Assembly (NCBI RefSeq): GCF_010672085.1
Contig: NZ_JAAHHT010000038.1
Location: 1-61,526 of the forward strand
Length of the DNA: 61,526 nucleotides
Reading direction: 5' to 3'
Origin: Okeania sp. SIO3I5
GTDB lineage: Bacteria > Cyanobacteriota > Cyanobacteriia > Cyanobacteriales > Microcoleaceae
Of this stretch, positions 14,997 to 23,857 are shown piece after piece. The notes below the pieces were generated by a model that was given only the letters and a program-made list of their open reading frames with translations, was not told the DNA's origin and ran no database searches. A program made the position numbers and the translations under genes. Each line of letters starts with the position of its first letter. Within the stretch, counting starts at the first letter, position 1.

Positions 14997-15480
14997 AATT
15001 TAGAATTTAGAATTATTAAACTTTGTATTTCAATTGTAATTTAGAATGTAAAATTTAGAATTCAGGACTTACCCAAAGGTTCTATATATAGTGCTGTGGT
15101 GCGTTACGCTGGCGCCAACACACCCTACCAATAGCGTTCATCCGTAAGTCCTAGAATTATTAAATTTTGTATTTCAATTCTAAATTCTGACGAATGTAGA
15201 ATGTAGAATTGAGAATTATTAAACTTCGTATTTTAATTCTCATTGAAAATTTAAAATTGAGAATTATTAAACTTAGTATTTTAATTCTAAATTCTGACGA
15301 TATTTAGCTCAAAAAGACCAACAAAAAAAGATGATTCCTAGACAAGCAAAAGGTAAACGACCAGTTTATTTAGATAATACAGATTGAGAATGTAGAATTA
15401 AGAATTGAGAATTAAGAATTAAGAATTGAGAATTATTAAACTTTGTATTTCAATTCTAAATTCTGACAATATTTAGCTCA
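14997..15480. repeat. AT-rich repeats derived from TTTAGAATT and a partial duplication
   Basis: Repeated blocks of AATTGAGAATTATTAAACTT with TTTCAATTCTAAATTCTGA fill this gap (copies near 15010, 15150, 15210, 15260, 15410). A family C element lies at 15063-15152 (ends AGGACTTACCC and CCGTAAGTCCT), with core TGGTGCGTTACGCTGGCGCC. The block 15290-15384 duplicates 15459-15553. Confidence 0.8.
15331..15387 (+). pseudogene. duplicated 5' end of the following small gene
   Basis: Encodes MIPRQAKGKRPVYLDNTD then TGA. It matches the first 18 codons of the gene at 15500 with one residue changed, together with about 40 nt of shared upstream sequence. The duplication junction supplies the stop. Could be translated as an 18-residue leader peptide, but more likely a duplication by-product. 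Confidence 0.75.
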
Positions 15481-15499
15481 AAAAGACCAACAAAAAAAA

Positions 15500-15769
15500 A
15501 TGATTCCTAAACAAGCAAAAGGTAAAAGACCAGTTTATTTAGATAATACAGATAATGATAAATTACTGGCAATAATAATGGCATTAGCAGGGGAAGTTTC
15601 CGTATTGCGGGAACGCCTAGATACAATTGAAAAATTAGTAGTAGCTAAAGGCATCATTTCCTCCGAAGACATTGAAAATTATCAGCCAGATGCACAAGTA
15701 AATGAGGAAAGGGAACAATGGCGTGCTGATTATATTGCTAGAATACTGAGAGTTATAGAAAATAGTTAA
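15500..15769 (+). CDS. small conserved cyanobacterial protein, coiled-coil
   Basis: An 89-residue soluble protein that I cannot assign to a named family. It has a basic N-terminus (MIPKQAKGKRPVYLDN) and a central helix IIMALAGEVSVLRERLDTIE with heptad-like hydrophobics suited to a coiled coil. An acidic, charged C-terminus follows (ISSEDIENYQPD, EEREQWRADYIARILRVI). It lies between the methyltransferase and the first monooxygenase, 13 nt before the latter, so it may be co-transcribed with the monooxygenase array. The ATG at 15500 follows an A-tract, without a clear Shine-Dalgarno. An in-frame TGA lies just upstream. Confidence 0.75.
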   Translation: MIPKQAKGKRPVYLDNTDNDKLLAIIMALAGEVSVLRERLDTIEKLVVAKGIISSEDIENYQPDAQVNEEREQWRADYIARILRVIENS

Positions 15770-15782
15770 TTAGTTTGAGACA

Positions 15783-16973
15783 ATGAAAAAAACAGTTGAA
15801 AAAGTTGCCATTATTGGTGCAGGGCCTGGTGGTTTAGCAACAGCGATCGCTCTGAGAAAACAAAGCATTGATGCCCATGTCTATGAGAAGGCAAAAGAAT
15901 TTCGTCCAGTGGGAGGTGGTCTCGGTTTAATGTCCAATGGTTTGAGGTGTCTGGATGCTATTGAACCAGAGATAGCTATTACACTAAAACTTGCAGGTTG
16001 TCAAGTAAAAAGAGTAACTGTGAACACAAGCGCTGGAGAAACCATTAGGACTACCGAAAGTACAATGATGGCTAAATACGGACAACCATTTTTAACTATT
16101 TGGTGGTGGCGGTTGCAACAGATTTTAGCATCTGCACTGCCACCAGAAGTTATTCACCTGAATCATAGTTACATAGGCTTTGAGCAAAATGAAAACACTG
16201 TCATTACTCACTTTGATAATGAAAAAACTGTCGATTCAGATTTGCTCATTGGAGCTGATGGGGTAAACTCTACAGTTAGACAAACATTAATTGATGATGG
16301 TCAACCAAGATATCTTGGTACGATGTCTTGGCGTACTGTCATTAATTATAACAAGAACAACAATCTACTACCACCAAATGAAGTCGTCGTTATGAGGGGA
16401 GAAAAAAGCATATTATTCCTGCTTAACTTAGGGGAGGGAAATATGTATTGGGGCGCTAGGAAGGTATTGTCAGATTCCTCTCTTTCCAACACTGCTACTG
16501 AGGTTAAGTCTCGTGTTCTCAAAGAATTCGCTGATTGGATCGAGCCAGTGCGGAAACTAATCGAAGCAACTGATGCTGAACGGATATTAGAAAGGCCAAT
16601 ATGCGACAAACCGCCATTAAAACAATGGAGTTATGGCAGGGTGACGTTATTGGGAGATGCAGCTCATCCCATGTCACCACTGGCAGGGCAAGGAGCAAAT
16701 ACCACTTTTGAAGATGCTTATGAACTTGCCGAATGTCTGTGCAACTTCTCAGACTTGCAAACAGCTCTCAGTGCCTACGACAACCGTCGCATCCAACGTA
16801 CAGCAATTATTCAAACTCTTACAGGGGAGAGTGAGAAAGGCTTAGATAAACCTACTCAGCAAACTAACCAACAGTCACAGCAGGAACGTGAAGAATTTCA
16901 AAATTGGCTGTATGATTACAATCCAAAATCAGAGTCGCGTCTGAGACCTTGGAAAGAAAAAGTAGTAATATAA
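15783..16973 (+). CDS. FAD-dependent monooxygenase 1
   Basis: This 396-residue group A flavoprotein monooxygenase is of the aromatic-hydroxylase/zeaxanthin-epoxidase-like type. The dinucleotide motif GAGPGG (11-16) sits in VAIIGAGPGGLATAIALRKQ, the mid-protein DG motif is LLIGADGVNS (about 154-163), and the FAD-ribityl GD motif is LLGDAAHPMSPLAGQGANTT (about 287-306). These features predict NAD(P)H- and O2-dependent hydroxylation or epoxidation of an unknown substrate in the cytosol. The C-terminus (FQNWLYDYNP, ESRLRPWKEKVV) is shared with paralogues 2 and 3. First of a tandem array, 32 nt before the next member. The spacer contains AAAGGAAACAAG, a likely ribosome-binding region. Confidence 0.92.
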   Translation: MKKTVEKVAIIGAGPGGLATAIALRKQSIDAHVYEKAKEFRPVGGGLGLMSNGLRCLDAIEPEIAITLKLAGCQVKRVTVNTSAGETIRTTESTMMAKYGQPFLTIWWWRLQQILASALPPEVIHLNHSYIGFEQNENTVITHFDNEKTVDSDLLIGADGVNSTVRQTLIDDGQPRYLGTMSWRTVINYNKNNNLLPPNEVVVMRGEKSILFLLNLGEGNMYWGARKVLSDSSLSNTATEVKSRVLKEFADWIEPVRKLIEATDAERILERPICDKPPLKQWSYGRVTLLGDAAHPMSPLAGQGANTTFEDAYELAECLCNFSDLQTALSAYDNRRIQRTAIIQTLTGESEKGLDKPTQQTNQQSQQEREEFQNWLYDYNPKSESRLRPWKEKVVI

Positions 16974-17005
16974 CAACAAATACCAATTCAAAGGAAACAA
17001 GCAAA

Positions 17006-18205
17006 ATGAGAGAAATGTCAAAACCTGTTGTGGAAAAAGTTGCCATTATTGGTGCAGGACCTGGTGGTTTAGCAACAGCGATCGCTCTGAGAAAACAAGG
17101 CATTGATGCTCATGTCTATGAGAAGGCCAGGGAATTTCGTCCAGTGGGAACAGGTTTAGGTTTAATGCCCAATGGTCTGAGATGCCTGGATGCCATTCAA
17201 CCAGGTATATTGAATACACTAAAAATTTCAGGTTGTCAACTCCAGAGAACTACCTTGAAGACAACCAGTGGAGAAATCATTAGGAGTACGGAACATAGCA
17301 TAGTAGCCCAAAAATACGGACAACAACTTTTAACTATTTGGTGGTGGCGTTTGCAACAGATTCTGGCATCATTTCTCCCACCAGATGTTATTCATCTAAA
17401 TTATCGTTGCATCAACTTTGAACAAAATGAAAATACTGTCATTACCCACTTTGAAAATGGCAAAACTGTTGTAGCAGATTTGCTCATTGGAGCGGATGGT
17501 GGAAATTCTGTAGTCAGACAAAAATTGATTGGTGATGGGCAACCTCAATATCTTGATACTATGTCTTGGCGTGCTGTTCTTGACTATAACGAGGAGTTAG
17601 TGCCACCTGATGAAGCCATTATGATCAAGGGAGAACAAAGTCTATTTTTTATCTTCAATTTAGGGGAGGGAAATATGAACTGGATTGCTCAGAAAGCATT
17701 GTCAGAAGCATCTTTTTCCTCTACCCCTGCTGAAACTAAGTCTCATGTTGTCAAAGAATATGCTAATGGGAACAAATTAGTGGAGAAAGTGATAGAAGCA
17801 ACCAATGCCGAACGCATCTTGGAAACTCCTATCTGCCACATACTACCATTAAACCAATGGAGTTATGGTAGGGTGACCCTATTGGGAGATGCTGCTCATC
17901 TGATGCCACCATCATCAGGGCAAGGAGCTAATACGACTTTTGAAGATGCTTATGAACTTGCTGAGTGTCTGGGTAATTTTCCAGACCTAGAAACTGCTCT
18001 AAGTACCTATGATCAACGTCGCATTCAGCGCACAGCGATTATTCAAACCCGTAGCACTAAAGGGCATAAACTCCAGTTCTCTCCACCGACTCAGCAAACA
18101 AACCAAAAGTCACCGCAGGATTTTCAAGAGTTTCAAAATTGGCTTTATGAGTATGATCCAAAATCAGAGTCGCGTCTGAAACCTTGGAAAGAAAAAGTAG
18201 TATAA
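17006..18205 (+). CDS. FAD-dependent monooxygenase 2
   Basis: A paralogue of the preceding gene. I chose ATG 17006 (MREMSKPVVEKVAIIG) because copies 3 and 4 begin with the same MRE(M/T)SKP sequence after the same AAGGAAAC-containing spacer; the longer frame from 16949 would overlap gene 1. FAD motifs are GAGPGG, LLIGADGGNS and LLGDAAHLMPPSSGQGANTT. The DG motif has Gly where the others have Val or Ile, and the proline after DAAH is replaced by Leu. These changes around the flavin pocket may alter specificity. The substrate-domain strand TIWWWRLQQILAS is shared with copy 1. Same strand and tight spacing suggest one transcript with genes 1 and 3. Confidence 0.92.
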   Translation: MREMSKPVVEKVAIIGAGPGGLATAIALRKQGIDAHVYEKAREFRPVGTGLGLMPNGLRCLDAIQPGILNTLKISGCQLQRTTLKTTSGEIIRSTEHSIVAQKYGQQLLTIWWWRLQQILASFLPPDVIHLNYRCINFEQNENTVITHFENGKTVVADLLIGADGGNSVVRQKLIGDGQPQYLDTMSWRAVLDYNEELVPPDEAIMIKGEQSLFFIFNLGEGNMNWIAQKALSEASFSSTPAETKSHVVKEYANGNKLVEKVIEATNAERILETPICHILPLNQWSYGRVTLLGDAAHLMPPSSGQGANTTFEDAYELAECLGNFPDLETALSTYDQRRIQRTAIIQTRSTKGHKLQFSPPTQQTNQKSPQDFQEFQNWLYEYDPKSESRLKPWKEKVV

Positions 18206-18238
18206 CAACAAATACCAGAAAAAAAGGAAACACGTCAA

Positions 18239-19432
18239 ATGAGAGAAACGTCAAAACCTCTTGTGAACAAGGTTGCCATTATTGGTGCAGGTCCTGGTGG
18301 TCTAGCAACAGCGATCGCTCTCAGAAAACAAGGTATTGATGCTCATGTCTATGAGAAAGCCAGGGAATTTTCTCCAGTGGGAGCAGGTGTATCATTAAAA
18401 CCTAATGGTATGAGATGTCTTGATGCAATTCAACCTGGTTTAGTAGATAAACTAAGACGTTTGGGTTTTCAAGTGCAGATAACAACTTTGAAAACAAGCA
18501 CTGGAGAAACTATTTGGACGACCAAAACTCCGATGATGCCAAAAGATCAAGAGCTAACATTTGCTATTTGGTGGTGGCATTTGCAACATATTCTAGTATC
18601 AGAGCTACCATCAGAAGTTATTCACTTGAATCATTCTTGCATCAACTTTGAGCAAAATGAAAACAGTGTCACTACCCAATTTGAAAATGGAAAAACAGTC
18701 GAAGCAGACCTATTAATTGGAGCTGATGGCATAAATTCTAGAGTCAGAGAAATATTAATAGGTGATGGGCAACCCAGGTATTCTGGTAGTATGTGTTGGC
18801 GTGCTATTATTGACTATAGAGGCGAACTACTGTTACCCAATGAAGGTCTAATAATTAGAGGAGAACAAACTGCAATGATTTTGTACCCTCTGGGTGAAGG
18901 AAAGATGAACTGGTCTGCTGGTAAACCATTTCCAGAATCTTTTGTCTCTCCTAGTGCTGCTGAGGTAAAATATCGGGTTCTCAAAGAATTTTCTAATTGG
19001 ATGAAACCAATACTAGAAATGATAGCTGAAACCGATGCTGAAACCATCTTAGAATCACCTATTTGCAGAAGACTGCCATTGAAGCAATGGAGTTATGGTA
19101 GGGTTACATTATTGGGAGATGCAGTTCATGGGATGTCACCGGGAGGAGGTCAAGGAGCTAATACTACTTTTGAAGACGCTTACGAACTTGCTGAATGTTT
19201 GTACAATTTCCCAGATTTACAAACTGCACTTAGTAACTATGATCAACGTCGTATTCAACGTACAGTAGTTATTCAAAACTATAGTGAGAAAATGGAGAAA
19301 ATTTCTTATCAGAACATCGAGGAGCAAAACCAACAGTCGCAGGAAAATTTTGCAGAGTTTGAACGTTGGTTATATGATTACGATCCTAACTTAGAGTCCC
19401 GTCTGAGACCTTGGAAAGAAAAAGTAGTATAG
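18239..19432 (+). CDS. FAD-dependent monooxygenase 3
   Basis: Third tandem paralogue, 397 residues, starting MRETSKPLVNKVAIIGAGPG. Motifs are GAGPGG, LLIGADGINS and LLGDAVHGMSPGGGQGANTT; note DAVHG in place of the usual DAAHP. C-terminus LYDYDPNLESRLRPWKEKVV is shared. The stop is TAG, whereas paralogues 1 and 2 and the fragment at 22166 end TAA followed by CAACAAATA. Here a family H element begins right inside the stop codon (AGCGCTACGC at 19431), and the expected TAACAACAAATA continues after it at 19557. The insertion replaced the stop without changing the protein. Probable operon with genes 1 and 2. Confidence 0.92.
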   Translation: MRETSKPLVNKVAIIGAGPGGLATAIALRKQGIDAHVYEKAREFSPVGAGVSLKPNGMRCLDAIQPGLVDKLRRLGFQVQITTLKTSTGETIWTTKTPMMPKDQELTFAIWWWHLQHILVSELPSEVIHLNHSCINFEQNENSVTTQFENGKTVEADLLIGADGINSRVREILIGDGQPRYSGSMCWRAIIDYRGELLLPNEGLIIRGEQTAMILYPLGEGKMNWSAGKPFPESFVSPSAAEVKYRVLKEFSNWMKPILEMIAETDAETILESPICRRLPLKQWSYGRVTLLGDAVHGMSPGGGQGANTTFEDAYELAECLYNFPDLQTALSNYDQRRIQRTVVIQNYSEKMEKISYQNIEEQNQQSQENFAEFERWLYDYDPNLESRLRPWKEKVV

Positions 19433-19551
19433 CGCTACGCGCTAGGGAATAGGGAATAGGGAATAGGGAATAGTAGAGTTTCAAAGGGTTTTCCTAGGTC
19501 ATGCTGCGCAAACAGGATTTATAAATGTCCTAACCTTAATGCGTAATACTA
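19431..19551. mobile_element. family H element inserted at the monooxygenase 3 stop codon
   Basis: Flanked by TAGTAT on both sides (19425-19430 and 19552-19557), a 6-bp target duplication. The ends are loosely inverted (GCTACGCGCTAGG against CCTTAATGCGTAATACTA). The interior has a GGGAATA tandem repeat (19443-19471) and GGATTTATAAATGTCCTAAC. A reversed relative lies at about 35843-36029, itself interrupted by a family A element. Confidence 0.8.
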
Positions 19552-19566
19552 TAGTATAACAACAAA

Positions 19567-19695
19567 TATAGCAATATGAAATAATTCGGTAAAAAAAGCT
19601 GTAGGGGTTTGGTCTCCAAACCCAAACGCATAAGGGATTTGGAGACCAAATTCCTACGATAAAATGTGACAACATGGATCGCGGATTGCTATATA
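19567..19695. mobile_element. family D element (TATAGCAAT ends)
   Basis: Ends TATAGCAAT and ATTGCTATA are inverted. The centre is a near-palindrome (GTAGGGGTTTGGTCTCCAAA against TTTGGAGACCAAATTCCTAC). It cuts into the post-monooxygenase spacer TAACAACAAATA. A relative is at about 29228-29325. Confidence 0.8.
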
Positions 19696-19701
19696 TAGTC
19701 T

Positions 19702-19741
19702 TTGACATACTCCCGTAAGGGCAACGTCGGGAGTATGTCAA
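19702..19741. terminator. perfect 14-bp inverted repeat before the MscS gene
   Basis: TTGACATACTCCCG (19702-19715) pairs exactly with CGGGAGTATGTCAA (19728-19741) around a 12-nt loop. It would block read-through from the monooxygenase array into the channel gene. The same arm TTGACATACTCCCGACG occurs at 36045-36061, so it may be the end of a mobile element rather than a native terminator. Confidence 0.5.
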
Positions 19742-19786
19742 TACTATTTCTTCCAAATATTAAGTTAATTCTGTACAGGTACTTAT

Positions 19787-21721
19787 ATGACAAGACTTCA
19801 AAAATATCTATTTAGATTTGCCCTTATAGTTTGCATCAGTTTACTATCAGTATTTCTATTTTCTCCTGTCCAAGCTCAAGATACAACAAGTGTCAAAGTT
19901 CCAGTGGTATTAGATGGTCGAAAATTGTTAGAAATTGACGCTTTGGGAAAACTGACAGCTCAGGAAAGAGCAGAATTTATCACATTAACTCTAGAGTCAG
20001 CCTTAGCTGATAGTATTGAAAGGGGAACACCTCCAGAGGTAAAAGTGGTTCGCTCCAATCAAAATGTGGTATTGAAAGTTGATAGTCGTCCCTTGCTAGA
20101 GTTGCCAGAGGATACCTTCAACTCTATTTACTCAGAGATGCAGCCGCAAATATGGCAGGAACAACTCCAGCAGGGTTTAGAGAAAAGTTGGCGGGAACGC
20201 ACACCCGCTTATACCCGTTGGGCAGTCAAAATGCTGATAATTGCTTTTATGACTACTCTGTTGCTTCAGGGGGGACTCGTATTGCTGTTTCGTTTCATTC
20301 TACGCCGGAAAATCAAAGATCCTCAGAGACGCTGGCACTCTTTACAACTATTAGTTTTGGTATTGTTGCAAGTGGGAATATGGGCGACATTCATCAATTA
20401 TGGAGTTCAATTATTTCCCATAACTAGAGGTTGGTTTTACGAGATTTTTCAACTTCTAGACAGTACATTTAATGCCAGAATGTTCCAATTGGGAGAAGAA
20501 ACCATTTCTCTCAACCGAATATTAGCGATCGCTCTAACTATCATTGCACTTTGGATAGGGGTAAGTTGGTTTGTCAGTATTCTCAAATCTCGCTTGCTCC
20601 CTCTCACGGAAGCAGAACCCAGTCACCAAGATACAATTGCTTTTTTTGTTCAATACGGACTACTCGGTTTAGGGGGTATCCTAATTCTTAATGCTGGAGG
20701 AGTAGACTTTCAATCTCTAGCTTTCTTGTTAGGAGCGCTCGGAGTTGGTATTGGTTTTGGATTACAAAATATTGTTAAAGACTTTATTTGTGGGTTAATT
20801 TTAATTGTCGCTCGTCCGATCAAAGTTGGAGAATTAGTTCAAGTAGGAGATTTTCAAGGTTTAGTTCAACGCATTGGTACCAGAACTACTGAGATTTCCA
20901 ATATCGAACGCTATATTATTACTATTCCCAATTCTCGCTTTATTGAAGGGGAAGTCCTCAACTGGAACCGTAGCGGTATAACTAGGGTAAAAGCTTATGT
21001 GAAAATTCCCTATGGAACAGATATTGATTTTGTCTACAAGGTTCTACTTGCTGCAGCGCAAGTGGAACATCCAGATATTCTCCGCCATCCTCCCCCCAAG
21101 GTAAAATTTCGGGAATATACAGAGGATGGGTTACAGTTTCGGGTAGTGGCATTTATCCGCGATCCTCTGAAGCAACCAAAGGTGAAAACCCACCTGTATA
21201 ACCAGATAGAAAGATACTTGCGAAAGTATGGAGTCGAAGTTGCTCGTCCCCAACAAGATCTACATCTTAAAGACTTAGATCCAGAAATCTATGCTTGGAT
21301 GCGATCGCAAACTCCTGTAGAATATCAAGTTCTACCTCAAGAAATTCCATCTATTGAACCACCTCCGAGCAAAGAAGAGTACGACTGGGAAGCAATATCT
21401 AGTGCGATGCGTGGAGAGAATGGAGTTTCTATCAAAGATCGACGATTTCAATTTAAGCTCTTCAAAAATGTCTTTTTAGGTTCCGAAGCAGTAGAGTGGT
21501 TAATGATTAATGAACGATCTACCAGGGAAGAAGCGATTTTAATGGGCGAGTTAATGTTACAAAAGGGAATAATTCATCACGTCCTAGACGAACATAATTT
21601 TAAAGATGAACCTCTTTTTTATCGGTTTTATTATGATGAAATTGAGAATAACCTTAGCACCAATTCTAATAGTTCAGAAAATGAAAGTGATTCAAAGCTA
21701 CAAGATGATTCTAATGAATAA
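19787..21721 (+). CDS. MscS-family mechanosensitive channel with C-terminal DEP domain
   Basis: This 644-residue protein has a signal peptide (to about residue 30, SPVQAQD) and a periplasmic region of about 110 residues. Several membrane segments lie between about 145 and 330. The MscS pore/beta domain has the signature FLLGALGVGIGFGLQNIVKD, then ARPIKVGELVQVGDFQG and ITIPNSRFIEGEVLNW. After the usual C-terminal alpha/beta domain, residues about 545-620 form a DEP domain (FKLFKNVFLGSEAVEWLM, then GELMLQKGIIHHVLDEHNF and FYRFYYDE). DEP domains bind membranes or signalling proteins, so gating may be tuned by a partner. The channel would release solutes on hypo-osmotic shock. Its segment sits where a further monooxygenase gene once stood. 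Confidence 0.9.
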   Translation: MTRLQKYLFRFALIVCISLLSVFLFSPVQAQDTTSVKVPVVLDGRKLLEIDALGKLTAQERAEFITLTLESALADSIERGTPPEVKVVRSNQNVVLKVDSRPLLELPEDTFNSIYSEMQPQIWQEQLQQGLEKSWRERTPAYTRWAVKMLIIAFMTTLLLQGGLVLLFRFILRRKIKDPQRRWHSLQLLVLVLLQVGIWATFINYGVQLFPITRGWFYEIFQLLDSTFNARMFQLGEETISLNRILAIALTIIALWIGVSWFVSILKSRLLPLTEAEPSHQDTIAFFVQYGLLGLGGILILNAGGVDFQSLAFLLGALGVGIGFGLQNIVKDFICGLILIVARPIKVGELVQVGDFQGLVQRIGTRTTEISNIERYIITIPNSRFIEGEVLNWNRSGITRVKAYVKIPYGTDIDFVYKVLLAAAQVEHPDILRHPPPKVKFREYTEDGLQFRVVAFIRDPLKQPKVKTHLYNQIERYLRKYGVEVARPQQDLHLKDLDPEIYAWMRSQTPVEYQVLPQEIPSIEPPPSKEEYDWEAISSAMRGENGVSIKDRRFQFKLFKNVFLGSEAVEWLMINERSTREEAILMGELMLQKGIIHHVLDEHNFKDEPLFYRFYYDEIENNLSTNSNSSENESDSKLQDDSNE

Positions 21722-21727
21722 GGATTT

Positions 21728-21855
<128 letters not shown>

Positions 21856-22031
21856 GATTCAATAATTAATAGACCTCTCCAGAAAAGAGGGAACACTTAA
21901 CACTTAACAGGGAACAGGTGACCAACCCCTAACCCCTCCTGGGAGGGGAATAATTGATAATTTATCAATAAGAATTGATTTTATTTTTTATTTTCGGAGA
22001 TGTCTAATAATTAACAATTAGAGTCCCATCT

Positions 22032-22164
22032 GATATCAAATCCGGTAATATTGGTAGAAAAAAGCAGAGAAACCGGGTTTGTATCATAAGCTCTACAATA
22101 CTAACATTGACCTCCCACAAACCCGGTTTCTTATAACACTTCCGTTGCCAAACGGATTTGATAT
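22032..22164. mobile_element. family B element, variant ends (GATATCAAATCCGG)
   Basis: GATATCAAATCCGG at 22032-22045 pairs with CGGATTTGATAT at 22153-22164. Inside is an imperfect palindrome GAAACCGGGTTTGT / ACAAACCCGGTTTC. Its right end abuts the monooxygenase 3' remnant. Confidence 0.8.
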
Positions 22165-22195
22165 GAAACCTTGGAAACAAAAAGTAGTAGTATAA
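22165..22195 (+). pseudogene. 3' remnant of a lost monooxygenase gene
   Basis: Ten codons at 22166-22195 (KPWKQKVVV then TAA), followed by CAACAAATACCAG, match the C-terminus KPWKEKVV and spacer of monooxygenases 1 to 3. With the truncated post-gene spacer after monooxygenase 3 (19557-19566), this marks both edges of a missing array member. Confidence 0.85.
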
Positions 22196-22229
22196 CAACA
22201 AATACCAGAAAAAAAAGGAAACAAGCAAA

Positions 22230-23408
22230 ATGAGAGAAACTTCTAAACCTGTTGTAGAAAAGGTTGCCATTATCGGAGGAGGTATTGGTGGTTTAGCAAC
22301 AGCGATCGCTTTGAGAAAACAAGGTATTGATGCCCATGTCTATGAGAAAGCTAGAGAGTTGCGCCCAGTTGGTGCAGGTTTATCCCTCAACCCCAACGGT
22401 TTAAAAGCTCTAGAGGCGATAAAACCAAGTCTAGTTGAACAATTGAAACAAGCAGGCAGCATACTCAAATTCATAAACTTGCGGAACAATACTGGGGAGA
22501 CAACTCAGCAAAAAAAAATCACCCTAATGGAAAAATACGGACAACCTATGTTGATTATCCGCTGGTCTAAATTACAGGAAATTCTAGCATCAGCACTTCC
22601 ACCAGAGATAATTCACCTGAATCATCGCTGCGTTAGCTTTACTCAAAATCATAACAGTGTAACAGTAGAATTTGAGGGTCAAAAAACAGTAGAGGTAGAC
22701 CTAGTAGTAGGAGCAGATGGAATTAAATCTGCTGTCAGACAAATACTAATTGGTGATGGCGAACCTCGCTATTTAGGTAGAATGTCTTGGCGTGGTCTGA
22801 TCAGGTATAGTCACGAACTACTTGCTGCTAATGAAGCGACTGCAATGATAGCCGCACCCAAGAACGTCACACTGATGGATGTGGGTGACGGATATATATC
22901 TTGGGGAGCAAAAATGCTATGTGTAGATGATTCTAGTTTAGGGAGTGCTGCTGATATCAAATCTCGACTTCTCAAAGAATTTGGTGAGTGGGCATCTCCT
23001 GTACCAGAGATTATAGAAGCAACAGATGCAGAAATCATTGTAGAACGACCGATATCGGATAGACCACCATTATCTAGTTGGAGCAAGGGGAGGGTTACAC
23101 TTTTGGGAGATGCTGCTCATCCCATGAGTCCATCTATTGGACAGGGAGCAAATACAGCTTTTGAAGATGGCTACGAGCTCTCCGAGTACCTGGCAAAAGC
23201 TCCTAACCTTGAGGCAGCTTTAGCCATCTATGATGAAAATCGCATAGAACGCACACAGATTATTCAAGCTCGTAGTGCTTTTTCGGGGAACCGAGCATAC
23301 AAACCTGACGGCGAAAAATATCTTCAGGAGAGATTGAGAAGTAATGAGGAGTTTGAAGACTGGCTTTATAAATACGAGCCATTAGCGATCGCGTCCCGTA
23401 TGGTATAG
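22230..23408 (+). CDS. FAD-dependent monooxygenase 4
   Basis: This 392-residue member starts MRETSKPVVEKVAIIGGGIG after the same AAGGAAACAAGC spacer as its paralogues. Motifs are GGGIGG (in place of GAGPGG), VVGADGIKS and LLGDAAHPMSPSIGQGANTA, all consistent with a working group A flavin monooxygenase. It is the most diverged copy: the substrate-binding region differs (LIIRWSKLQEILAS where copies 1 and 2 have LTIWWWRLQQILAS), and the C-terminal tail is shorter (FEDWLYKYEP, no LRPWKEKVV). It is separated from copies 1-3 by the MscS gene. A distinct substrate or regiochemistry is plausible but not shown. Confidence 0.92.
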   Translation: MRETSKPVVEKVAIIGGGIGGLATAIALRKQGIDAHVYEKARELRPVGAGLSLNPNGLKALEAIKPSLVEQLKQAGSILKFINLRNNTGETTQQKKITLMEKYGQPMLIIRWSKLQEILASALPPEIIHLNHRCVSFTQNHNSVTVEFEGQKTVEVDLVVGADGIKSAVRQILIGDGEPRYLGRMSWRGLIRYSHELLAANEATAMIAAPKNVTLMDVGDGYISWGAKMLCVDDSSLGSAADIKSRLLKEFGEWASPVPEIIEATDAEIIVERPISDRPPLSSWSKGRVTLLGDAAHPMSPSIGQGANTAFEDGYELSEYLAKAPNLEAALAIYDENRIERTQIIQARSAFSGNRAYKPDGEKYLQERLRSNEEFEDWLYKYEPLAIASRMV

Positions 23409-23857
23409 AATGAGAGGGAAGTGTGGGAAGGGTGGGAAGTGTGGGGAGTGTGGGGATATCTAGAAAGACTTGGCAATAGCGCTCGGTCACGAGAACATTT
23501 TTTATACCTACCCGAAAGTGCGATGTTATGATAAGATCAGGACTTACGCATTACCGCTATATCTAGTAGGGGCGGTTTCCTAGGTCATGCTCCTAATTAC
23601 GCGGAAAGCGACAGCATTCGGAACGAAACCGCCCCTACATTTGGTGTAAAATTTGATATGCGTGCGTAATATCATGTCCGGTTGAATAGTTTAAAAATGG
23701 AGGAGTCAGTAGTTGTAGGGGCGAGCAAGCGAATCGCCCCTACAGGAGTCAGGAGGGAAGAGGGGGGAATCTAAAGCTATAAGGAGGAAAAAGTTTTTTT
23801 ATCACGCTCTTATCCGGACATGATATAATTATCCATTATCCATTATCCATTAATGAA
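23409..23857. mobile_element. repeat cluster: tandem repeat, family C and family B elements
   Basis: Contents in order: GTGTGGGAA-type repeats (23418-23456); a family C element 23539-23669 (AGGACTTACGCA left end, GCGGTTTC core pair, right end truncated at GCGTGCGTAAT); a family B element 23668-23828 (TAATATCATGTCCGGTTG to TCCGGACATGATATAA) that overlaps the truncated end; then a TTATCCA tandem repeat (23829-23853) right before the hydrolase start. No gene seen. Confidence 0.8.

What the first reader, a model, noticed from the sequence alone, without database searches (positions are those of the whole stretch)
15783..23408. Flavin monooxygenase array with a deleted fifth member replaced by an MscS-DEP gene
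Copies 1-3 are contiguous with conserved spacers. After copy 3 (beyond an inserted element) the spacer sequence TAACAACAAATA persists at 19557. Before copy 4, ten C-terminal codons of another monooxygenase plus its spacer survive at 22166. Both edges of a lost gene are thus visible, with the MscS-DEP gene and repeats between them. The array therefore had at least five members and has been cut open.
Basis: partly seen in the sequence, partly recalled or inferred. Interest (0 to 1): 0.65.

Follow-up and report, generated by a model that had tools for sequence, protein, structure and literature searches.

The report
Channel gene replaced two array genes
In this filamentous cyanobacterium a mechanosensitive-channel gene has moved from its usual neighbourhood into a row of related flavin-enzyme genes, where at least one and probably two of those genes were lost and left only a short tail; it is a well-preserved example of ordinary genome reshuffling.

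Summary
Three intact flavin monooxygenase genes (A, B, C) stand in tandem. After C its spacer persists (19555-19568). Before the fourth gene (F) lies the tail of another monooxygenase with a complete spacer. That tail is longer than reported: it continues on the other side of a MITE inserted in it.

Relatives support the reading. Okeania sp. SIO2C9 has C-D-E*-F* (* broken), O. hirsuta B-D-E-F, and Hydrocoleum sp. CS-953, with the same left-hand neighbours as the window, B-A-D-E. No D/E-type gene was found in the window's own genome, so probably two genes were lost, not one.

The MscS-DEP gene is the newcomer. In 10 of 11 relatives with an orthologue it stands divergent from one conserved 298-aa gene (8 intact, 1 cut by a contig end, 1 decayed). 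In the window's genome that gene lies on another contig with no MscS sequence beside it. The moved piece kept about 95 bp of upstream DNA (36 of them a later hairpin) and under 30 bp downstream. At least two of the repeats in the seams are later MITE insertions.

Real and well documented, but ordinary genome plasticity. How the gene moved is not shown, and the junctions come from one assembly.

The parts
15783..16973 (+). Flavin monooxygenase type A (copy 1); its upstream array spacer is missing
   Evidence: PF01494 E 9e-27; orthologue Hydrocoleum gene 2, 89% nt over the unbroken part
17006..18205 (+). Flavin monooxygenase type B (copy 2)
   Evidence: PF01494 E 1.4e-30; orthologues O. hirsuta 89%, Hydrocoleum 90% nt
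18239..19432 (+). Flavin monooxygenase type C (copy 3)
   Evidence: PF01494 E 5.7e-31; orthologue Okeania SIO2C9 gene 1, 90% nt, there followed directly by D
19432..19554 (.). Short insertion in the spacer after C, between two copies of AGTATA (19426, 19553)
   Evidence: Same element at the same spacer base, before gene D, in Hydrocoleum L002
19555..19568 (+). Surviving left part of the spacer after C: left cut edge
   Evidence: Exact TATAACAACAAATA
19569..19691 (.). MITE_L, TA on both sides
   Evidence: 71 matches listed in own genome, inner-palindrome matches of the same copies included, 40 of 495 first-look candidates scored; TA on both sides in 10 of 10 full-length copies
19692..19786 (+). 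Upstream DNA of the MscS gene that came with it; holds a hairpin insertion at 19704-19739
   Evidence: The 47 bases before the ATG match G005 and G004 at 83%; TATAGTCTTT seen in the same place in G001 and G005; hairpin coordinates
19787..21721 (+). MscS-family channel gene with a DEP domain; relocated
   Evidence: PF00924, PF21082, PF00610 above cutoffs; orthologues at 73-89% at another locus in 11 relatives
21730..21854 (.). MITE_a, TGA target duplication
   Evidence: TNA duplication in 7 of 7 elements with these ends, each listed on both strands
21870..22006 (.). MITE_b-like repeat, inverted ends; 8-base direct repeat ATAATTAA beside it
   Evidence: 5 full-length copies; only the window copy has the 8-base repeat
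22014..22033 (+). Relic of a lost monooxygenase, left piece
   Evidence: In-register match to tails of 15 genes, best 12 of 14; 0 of 53,713 control 14-mers
22034..22163 (.). MITE_R inserted inside the relic, TGA target duplication
   Evidence: Duplication of 3 bases in 15 of 18 full-length copies; 47 matches listed in own genome, 40 of 493 candidates scored
22164..22195 (+). Relic, right piece: last codons (KPWKQKVVV, stop) of the lost monooxygenase
22196..22229 (+). Complete array spacer before F: right cut edge
22230..23408 (+). Flavin monooxygenase type F (copy 4)
   Evidence: PF01494 E 4e-30; orthologues O. hirsuta 91%, MO_207.B10 93% nt

Best explanation
An ancestral tandem array of class A flavin monooxygenases held at least types A, B, C, D, E and F, joined by near-identical spacers of 32-34 bases. 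In this lineage D and all but about the last 15 codons of E were lost. A piece of about 2 kb with the MscS-DEP gene, its upstream DNA and under 30 bp downstream now joins the spacer after C to the tail of the lost gene, in the same orientation. The MscS gene left its old place beside a conserved 298-aa gene, which remains on another contig. MITEs and a hairpin element landed in the seams. Shown: extra genes in relatives, the relic, no D/E-type gene found elsewhere in the genome, the changed position of the MscS gene, MITE_R inside the relic. Inferred: that two genes rather than one were lost, that loss and insertion were one event, that the joining was non-homologous, and that relic and spacer were kept because the spacer carries F's ribosome-binding site.
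For: Gene types and orders: tree and identities, maps. Own genome: only A, B, C, F and distant homologues at 27-51% identity. MscS orthologues at 73% or more in 11 of 58 relatives: beside the 298-aa gene in 8 intact, 1 cut by a contig end (G002), 1 decayed (G001); the G010 contig ends 51 bases upstream. In the window's genome the 298-aa gene is on C549 with its usual far-side neighbours, a FeoB gene on the MscS side, and no MscS sequence. In the 4 same-genus genomes with both, FeoB and MscS are on different contigs. The MscS piece keeps its upstream DNA. The relic reads on across MITE_R. Target duplications. Hydrocoleum shares the left neighbours.
Against: The relic cannot be typed as E by sequence: it scores best with SIO2C9 D (130) against 84 for O. 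hirsuta E and 73 for Hydrocoleum E, and O. hirsuta E has only 9 of 14 in the in-register test. D and E are unresolved in the tree; within one genome they are 82-86% alike, between genomes 85-89%. No single genome has all of A-F, and orders differ (A-B in the window, B-A in Hydrocoleum). Window B, C and F differ less from other genera (dS 0.10-0.27) than MscS and the 298-aa gene do from Okeania (0.39-0.53), so array parts may have been exchanged horizontally. TA flanks of MITE_L cannot separate a later insertion from recombination or misassembly at MITEs.
Confidence: 0.78

Rival explanations
1. No gene was lost: C and F were neighbours, the MscS piece inserted between them and the event duplicated some 70 bases of C's tail and spacer; the relic is that duplicate.
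For: The relic shares TTAGAGTCCC with C's own tail and C ties for the best in-register score, 12 of 14. Both edges carry the same spacer.
Against: The relic differs from C's tail by one codon (GTAGTAGTA against GTAGTA) and several bases. The lower score of C is not a fair test, because C's stretch there lacked the spacer. D and E lie between C and F in SIO2C9 and before F in O. hirsuta, and Hydrocoleum has D-E. A duplication of that length is not usual for transposons (general knowledge).
Confidence: 0.12
2. The exchange was MITE-driven: MITE_L copies in the spacer after C and upstream of MscS recombined and brought the MscS piece in.
For: MITE_L lies exactly between array spacer and MscS upstream DNA, and the family is abundant. 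In O. hirsuta the same family sits in the E-F spacer at the same base.
Against: On the right MITE_R is not the boundary, since monooxygenase sequence lies on both sides of it, and MITE_a and MITE_R have matching 3-base duplications. In 5 of 11 MscS relatives compared, the 1200 bp upstream of MscS did not match the MITE_L stretch.
Confidence: 0.25
3. The layout is an assembly chimera joined at repeats.
For: The genome is in 562 contigs and repeats lie at both seams; no second genome with the junction was available.
Against: The MscS gene's old place is altered in the same assembly; no D/E-type gene turns up in an assembly rated 99.98% complete; the relic continues in register across MITE_R.
Confidence: 0.08

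Closest known systems
Class A flavin monooxygenases, nearest model urate hydroxylase HpxO
   Same: PF01494 domain; HpxO is the best NCBIfam model for all four copies; for copy 2 the best solved structures are 3rp8/3rp6, a 'flavoprotein monooxygenase' (that this is HpxO is recalled)
   Different: Far below the HpxO cutoff of 500 bits; substrate unknown; tandem array
MscS/MscK-type mechanosensitive channels
   Same: PF00924 and PF21082; best NCBIfam model is MscK, below its cutoff
   Different: C-terminal DEP domain, PF00610; close orthologues (73% or more) in 11 of 58 relatives, all 11 in the window's family
Bacterial MITEs
   Same: Short, many copies, inverted ends, TA or TNA target duplications
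   Different: No parent transposase was sought or identified

Membership tests
Class A flavin monooxygenase (PF01494) | FAD_binding_3 domain above the curated cutoff | tested here: met
   94.6, 107.2, 108.4, 105.7 bits against 22
Urate hydroxylase HpxO | NCBIfam equivalog score of at least 500 bits | tested here: not met
   215.8, 214.5, 226.8, 251.5 bits
Class A flavin monooxygenase (PF01494) | Flavin-dependent hydroxylation of a substrate | not testable with these tools
   Needs an enzyme assay
MscS-family channel with DEP domain | PF00924, PF21082 and PF00610 above cutoffs | tested here: met
   65.7, 40.4, 79.1 bits against 20.2, 21, 32.7
MITE (elements L, a, R) | Several copies with inverted ends and short target duplications | tested here: met
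   L: TA in 10 of 10 copies; R: 15 of 18, a: 7 of 7
MITE (element b) | Consistent target duplication | tested here: inconclusive
   1 of 5 full-length copies has a duplication of 7 bases or more
Composite transposon carrying MscS | Two flanking elements of one family | tested here: not met
   Left and right elements have different ends and each its own duplication

The most novel reading that the evidence does not exclude
The monooxygenase array behaves as a shuffled cassette system: its near-identical spacers are joints at which genes A-F are reordered, lost and passed between genera, so a gene travels with its upstream spacer and a scrap of its former neighbour's tail. Five of nine genes that stand behind a cut or an interrupted spacer keep such a tail and spacer, among them a lone F gene in another genus.
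Probability: 0.2. Interest if true: 0.5.

Novelty: new member of a known kind. Interest (0 to 1): 0.33.

Why it matters
It is a clearly readable case of one gene taking the place of members of a tandem array: both cut edges, the moved gene's old address, fuller arrays in relatives and later MITE layers are all visible. It also shows that short gene tails plus spacer can survive as fossils when an array is cut, which helps to recognise lost array members from sequence alone. It says little new about enzyme or channel function.

Tried and rejected
MITE_R as the right recombination boundary: rejected, because monooxygenase sequence lies on both sides of it. Composite transposon: rejected. HpxO as the name of the enzymes: cutoff not met. 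Typing the relic as D or E by sequence: inconclusive. The free local alignment of the relic's left piece was not significant (104 of 1000 shuffles); the in-register test was. A first set of MITE boundaries was a few bases off for a, b and R and was redone. Promoter and terminator scan of 19400-22260: 9 promoter-like sites against 8.0 expected, 4 terminator-like against 1.9 expected; no conclusion drawn. Five paper searches (Trichodesmium with MITEs, mechanosensitive with DEP domain in cyanobacteria, MITEs in cyanobacteria, Okeania monooxygenase genome, Trichodesmium noncoding DNA) showed nothing on this locus in their listings of 2, 1, 15 of 43, 3 and 4 papers; no paper was opened. No structure was predicted.
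Full report
What is there. The window is contig C312 of a 10.5 Mb genome in 562 contigs. It holds four flavin monooxygenase genes with the PF01494 domain, here called A, B, C and F. A, B and C are contiguous with gaps of 32 and 33 bases; the spacer before F has 34. Between C and F lie a short inserted element, a spacer remnant, a MITE, the MscS-DEP gene, three further repeats and the tail of another monooxygenase. The spacer and tail motifs are far beyond chance in the window.

Gene types in relatives. One scan of named genome contigs gave 34 loci. Array pieces occur in Okeania hirsuta (L001, L019), Hydrocoleum sp. CS-953 (L002), Okeania SIO2C9 (L003) and SIO2F4 (L028); Microcoleaceae MO_207.B10 (L027) has a lone F gene. 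The other loci hold one homologue each, L031 and L034 in two pieces. A family-wide search with F found matches at E 1e-90 or better in 5 of 61 genomes, the window's own included.

The tree supports A (window c1, Hydrocoleum 2), B (window c2, O. hirsuta 1, Hydrocoleum 1), C (window c3, SIO2C9 1) and F (window c4, O. hirsuta 4, SIO2C9 4, MO_207) at 99-100%. D (O. hirsuta 2, SIO2C9 2, Hydrocoleum 3) and E (O. hirsuta 3, SIO2C9 3, Hydrocoleum 4) are not resolved by the tree. I assign them by order and by nucleotide identity: 86-89% within D, 85-89% within E, 82-86% between D and E of one genome, so the split is weak. Orders: window A-B-C-[MscS]-F; O. hirsuta B-D-E-F on one contig; Hydrocoleum B-A-D-E; SIO2C9 C-D-E*-F*.

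Same locus. Hydrocoleum shares the window's left neighbours: the end of the TamB gene 86%, a methyltransferase 91%, a small gene 95%. On the right it has a related hydrolase (67%) and the first 31 residues of the propeller-like protein (90%). The element after C in the window sits after A and in front of D in Hydrocoleum, at the same base of the spacer. The spacer at 19555 therefore most likely once led into D.

The relic. With MITE_R and one copy of its TGA duplication set aside, the tail reads on in register to the left (best 12 of 14; 0 of 53,713 control 14-mers). It is about 15 codons or more. With the other two repeats set aside too, it begins about 27 bases after the MscS stop codon. Its sequence does not say whether it is E; its place before F does.

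The MscS gene moved. An orthologue at 73-89% identity was found in 11 of 58 relatives; one same-genus genome, G006, 81% complete, showed none at that level. In 8 of the 11 it is divergent from an intact 298-aa gene, which has no Pfam match. In G002 that gene is cut by the contig end, in G001 it is decayed with an intact copy elsewhere, and the G010 contig ends 51 bases upstream. In the window's genome the 298-aa gene is on C549 with its usual far-side neighbours. On the MscS side stands a FeoB gene, and no MscS sequence is found there. In the 4 same-genus genomes that have both, FeoB and MscS are on different contigs, so the old place was rearranged too. The moved gene keeps upstream DNA like that of G004 and G005. 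None of the 11 MscS loci holds such a monooxygenase, and none of the 34 monooxygenase loci holds this MscS gene. Its dN/dS against G003 is 0.205; six other pairs give 0.16-0.38, so it shows no decay.

Order of layers. MITE_L copies are TA-flanked (10 of 10). MITE_R copies have 3-base duplications in 15 of 18 and MITE_a-like elements in 7 of 7. MITE_R and MITE_a are therefore later landings. For MITE_L a recombination origin stays possible, and b is unclear.

History and function. Pairs of the same type have dN/dS 0.18-0.42, so the genes are under purifying selection. Window B, C and F differ from other genera by dS 0.10-0.27, against 0.45-0.53 for MscS and 0.39-0.44 for the 298-aa gene versus Okeania. 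Hydrocoleum B against O. hirsuta B is 0.083, against 0.578 for MscS. The neighbouring second hydrolase is also low (0.179), the propeller-like protein not (0.420 over 66 codons). This suggests horizontal exchange of array parts and weakens, without removing, the argument that D and E were ancestral here; the relic points to at least one lost gene in any case. The enzymes resemble HpxO most but fall far below its cutoff. Their substrate is unknown, and I see no functional link with the channel.

A recurring trace. Of nine genes that stand behind a cut or an interrupted spacer, read by eye, five keep a spacer and a tail of a missing gene: window F, O. hirsuta B, the O. hirsuta L019 gene, SIO2C9 C and MO_207 F. 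Four do not: window A lacks the spacer, Hydrocoleum B and the SIO2F4 gene keep only its right part, and Hydrocoleum D's spacer is interrupted. A likely reason, inferred, is that the spacer carries the ribosome-binding site of the next gene.

Verdict. It is a clear but ordinary case of genome reshuffling.

Noticed in passing
window 23409-23857; L003 13946-15966: SIO2C9 has two hydrolase genes after F, 67% and 88% identical to the window's single one; the window has only the second, with repeats in the gap, so a further gene was probably lost between F and the hydrolase.
   Followed up: partly
L003 11902-13228; L028 10658-11820: In SIO2C9 an IS605 OrfB-type gene (PF01385), and in SIO2F4 a similar-looking one (by eye), interrupt a D/E-type monooxygenase near codon 220, each with loss of adjacent sequence.
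   Followed up: partly
L002 4600-7512: Hydrocoleum genes B and A contain internal direct duplications; the first one in B shifts the frame. They may be real or an assembly fault.
   Followed up: no
L001 3861-3979; window 19569-19691: The same MITE family is inserted at the same base of an array spacer in O. hirsuta (E-F) and in the window (after C), so the spacer may be a preferred target.
   Followed up: partly
window 15242-15553: A 143-base stretch upstream of A is duplicated at 93% (15242-15384 and 15411-15553); the second copy holds the start of the small gene at 15500.
   Followed up: no
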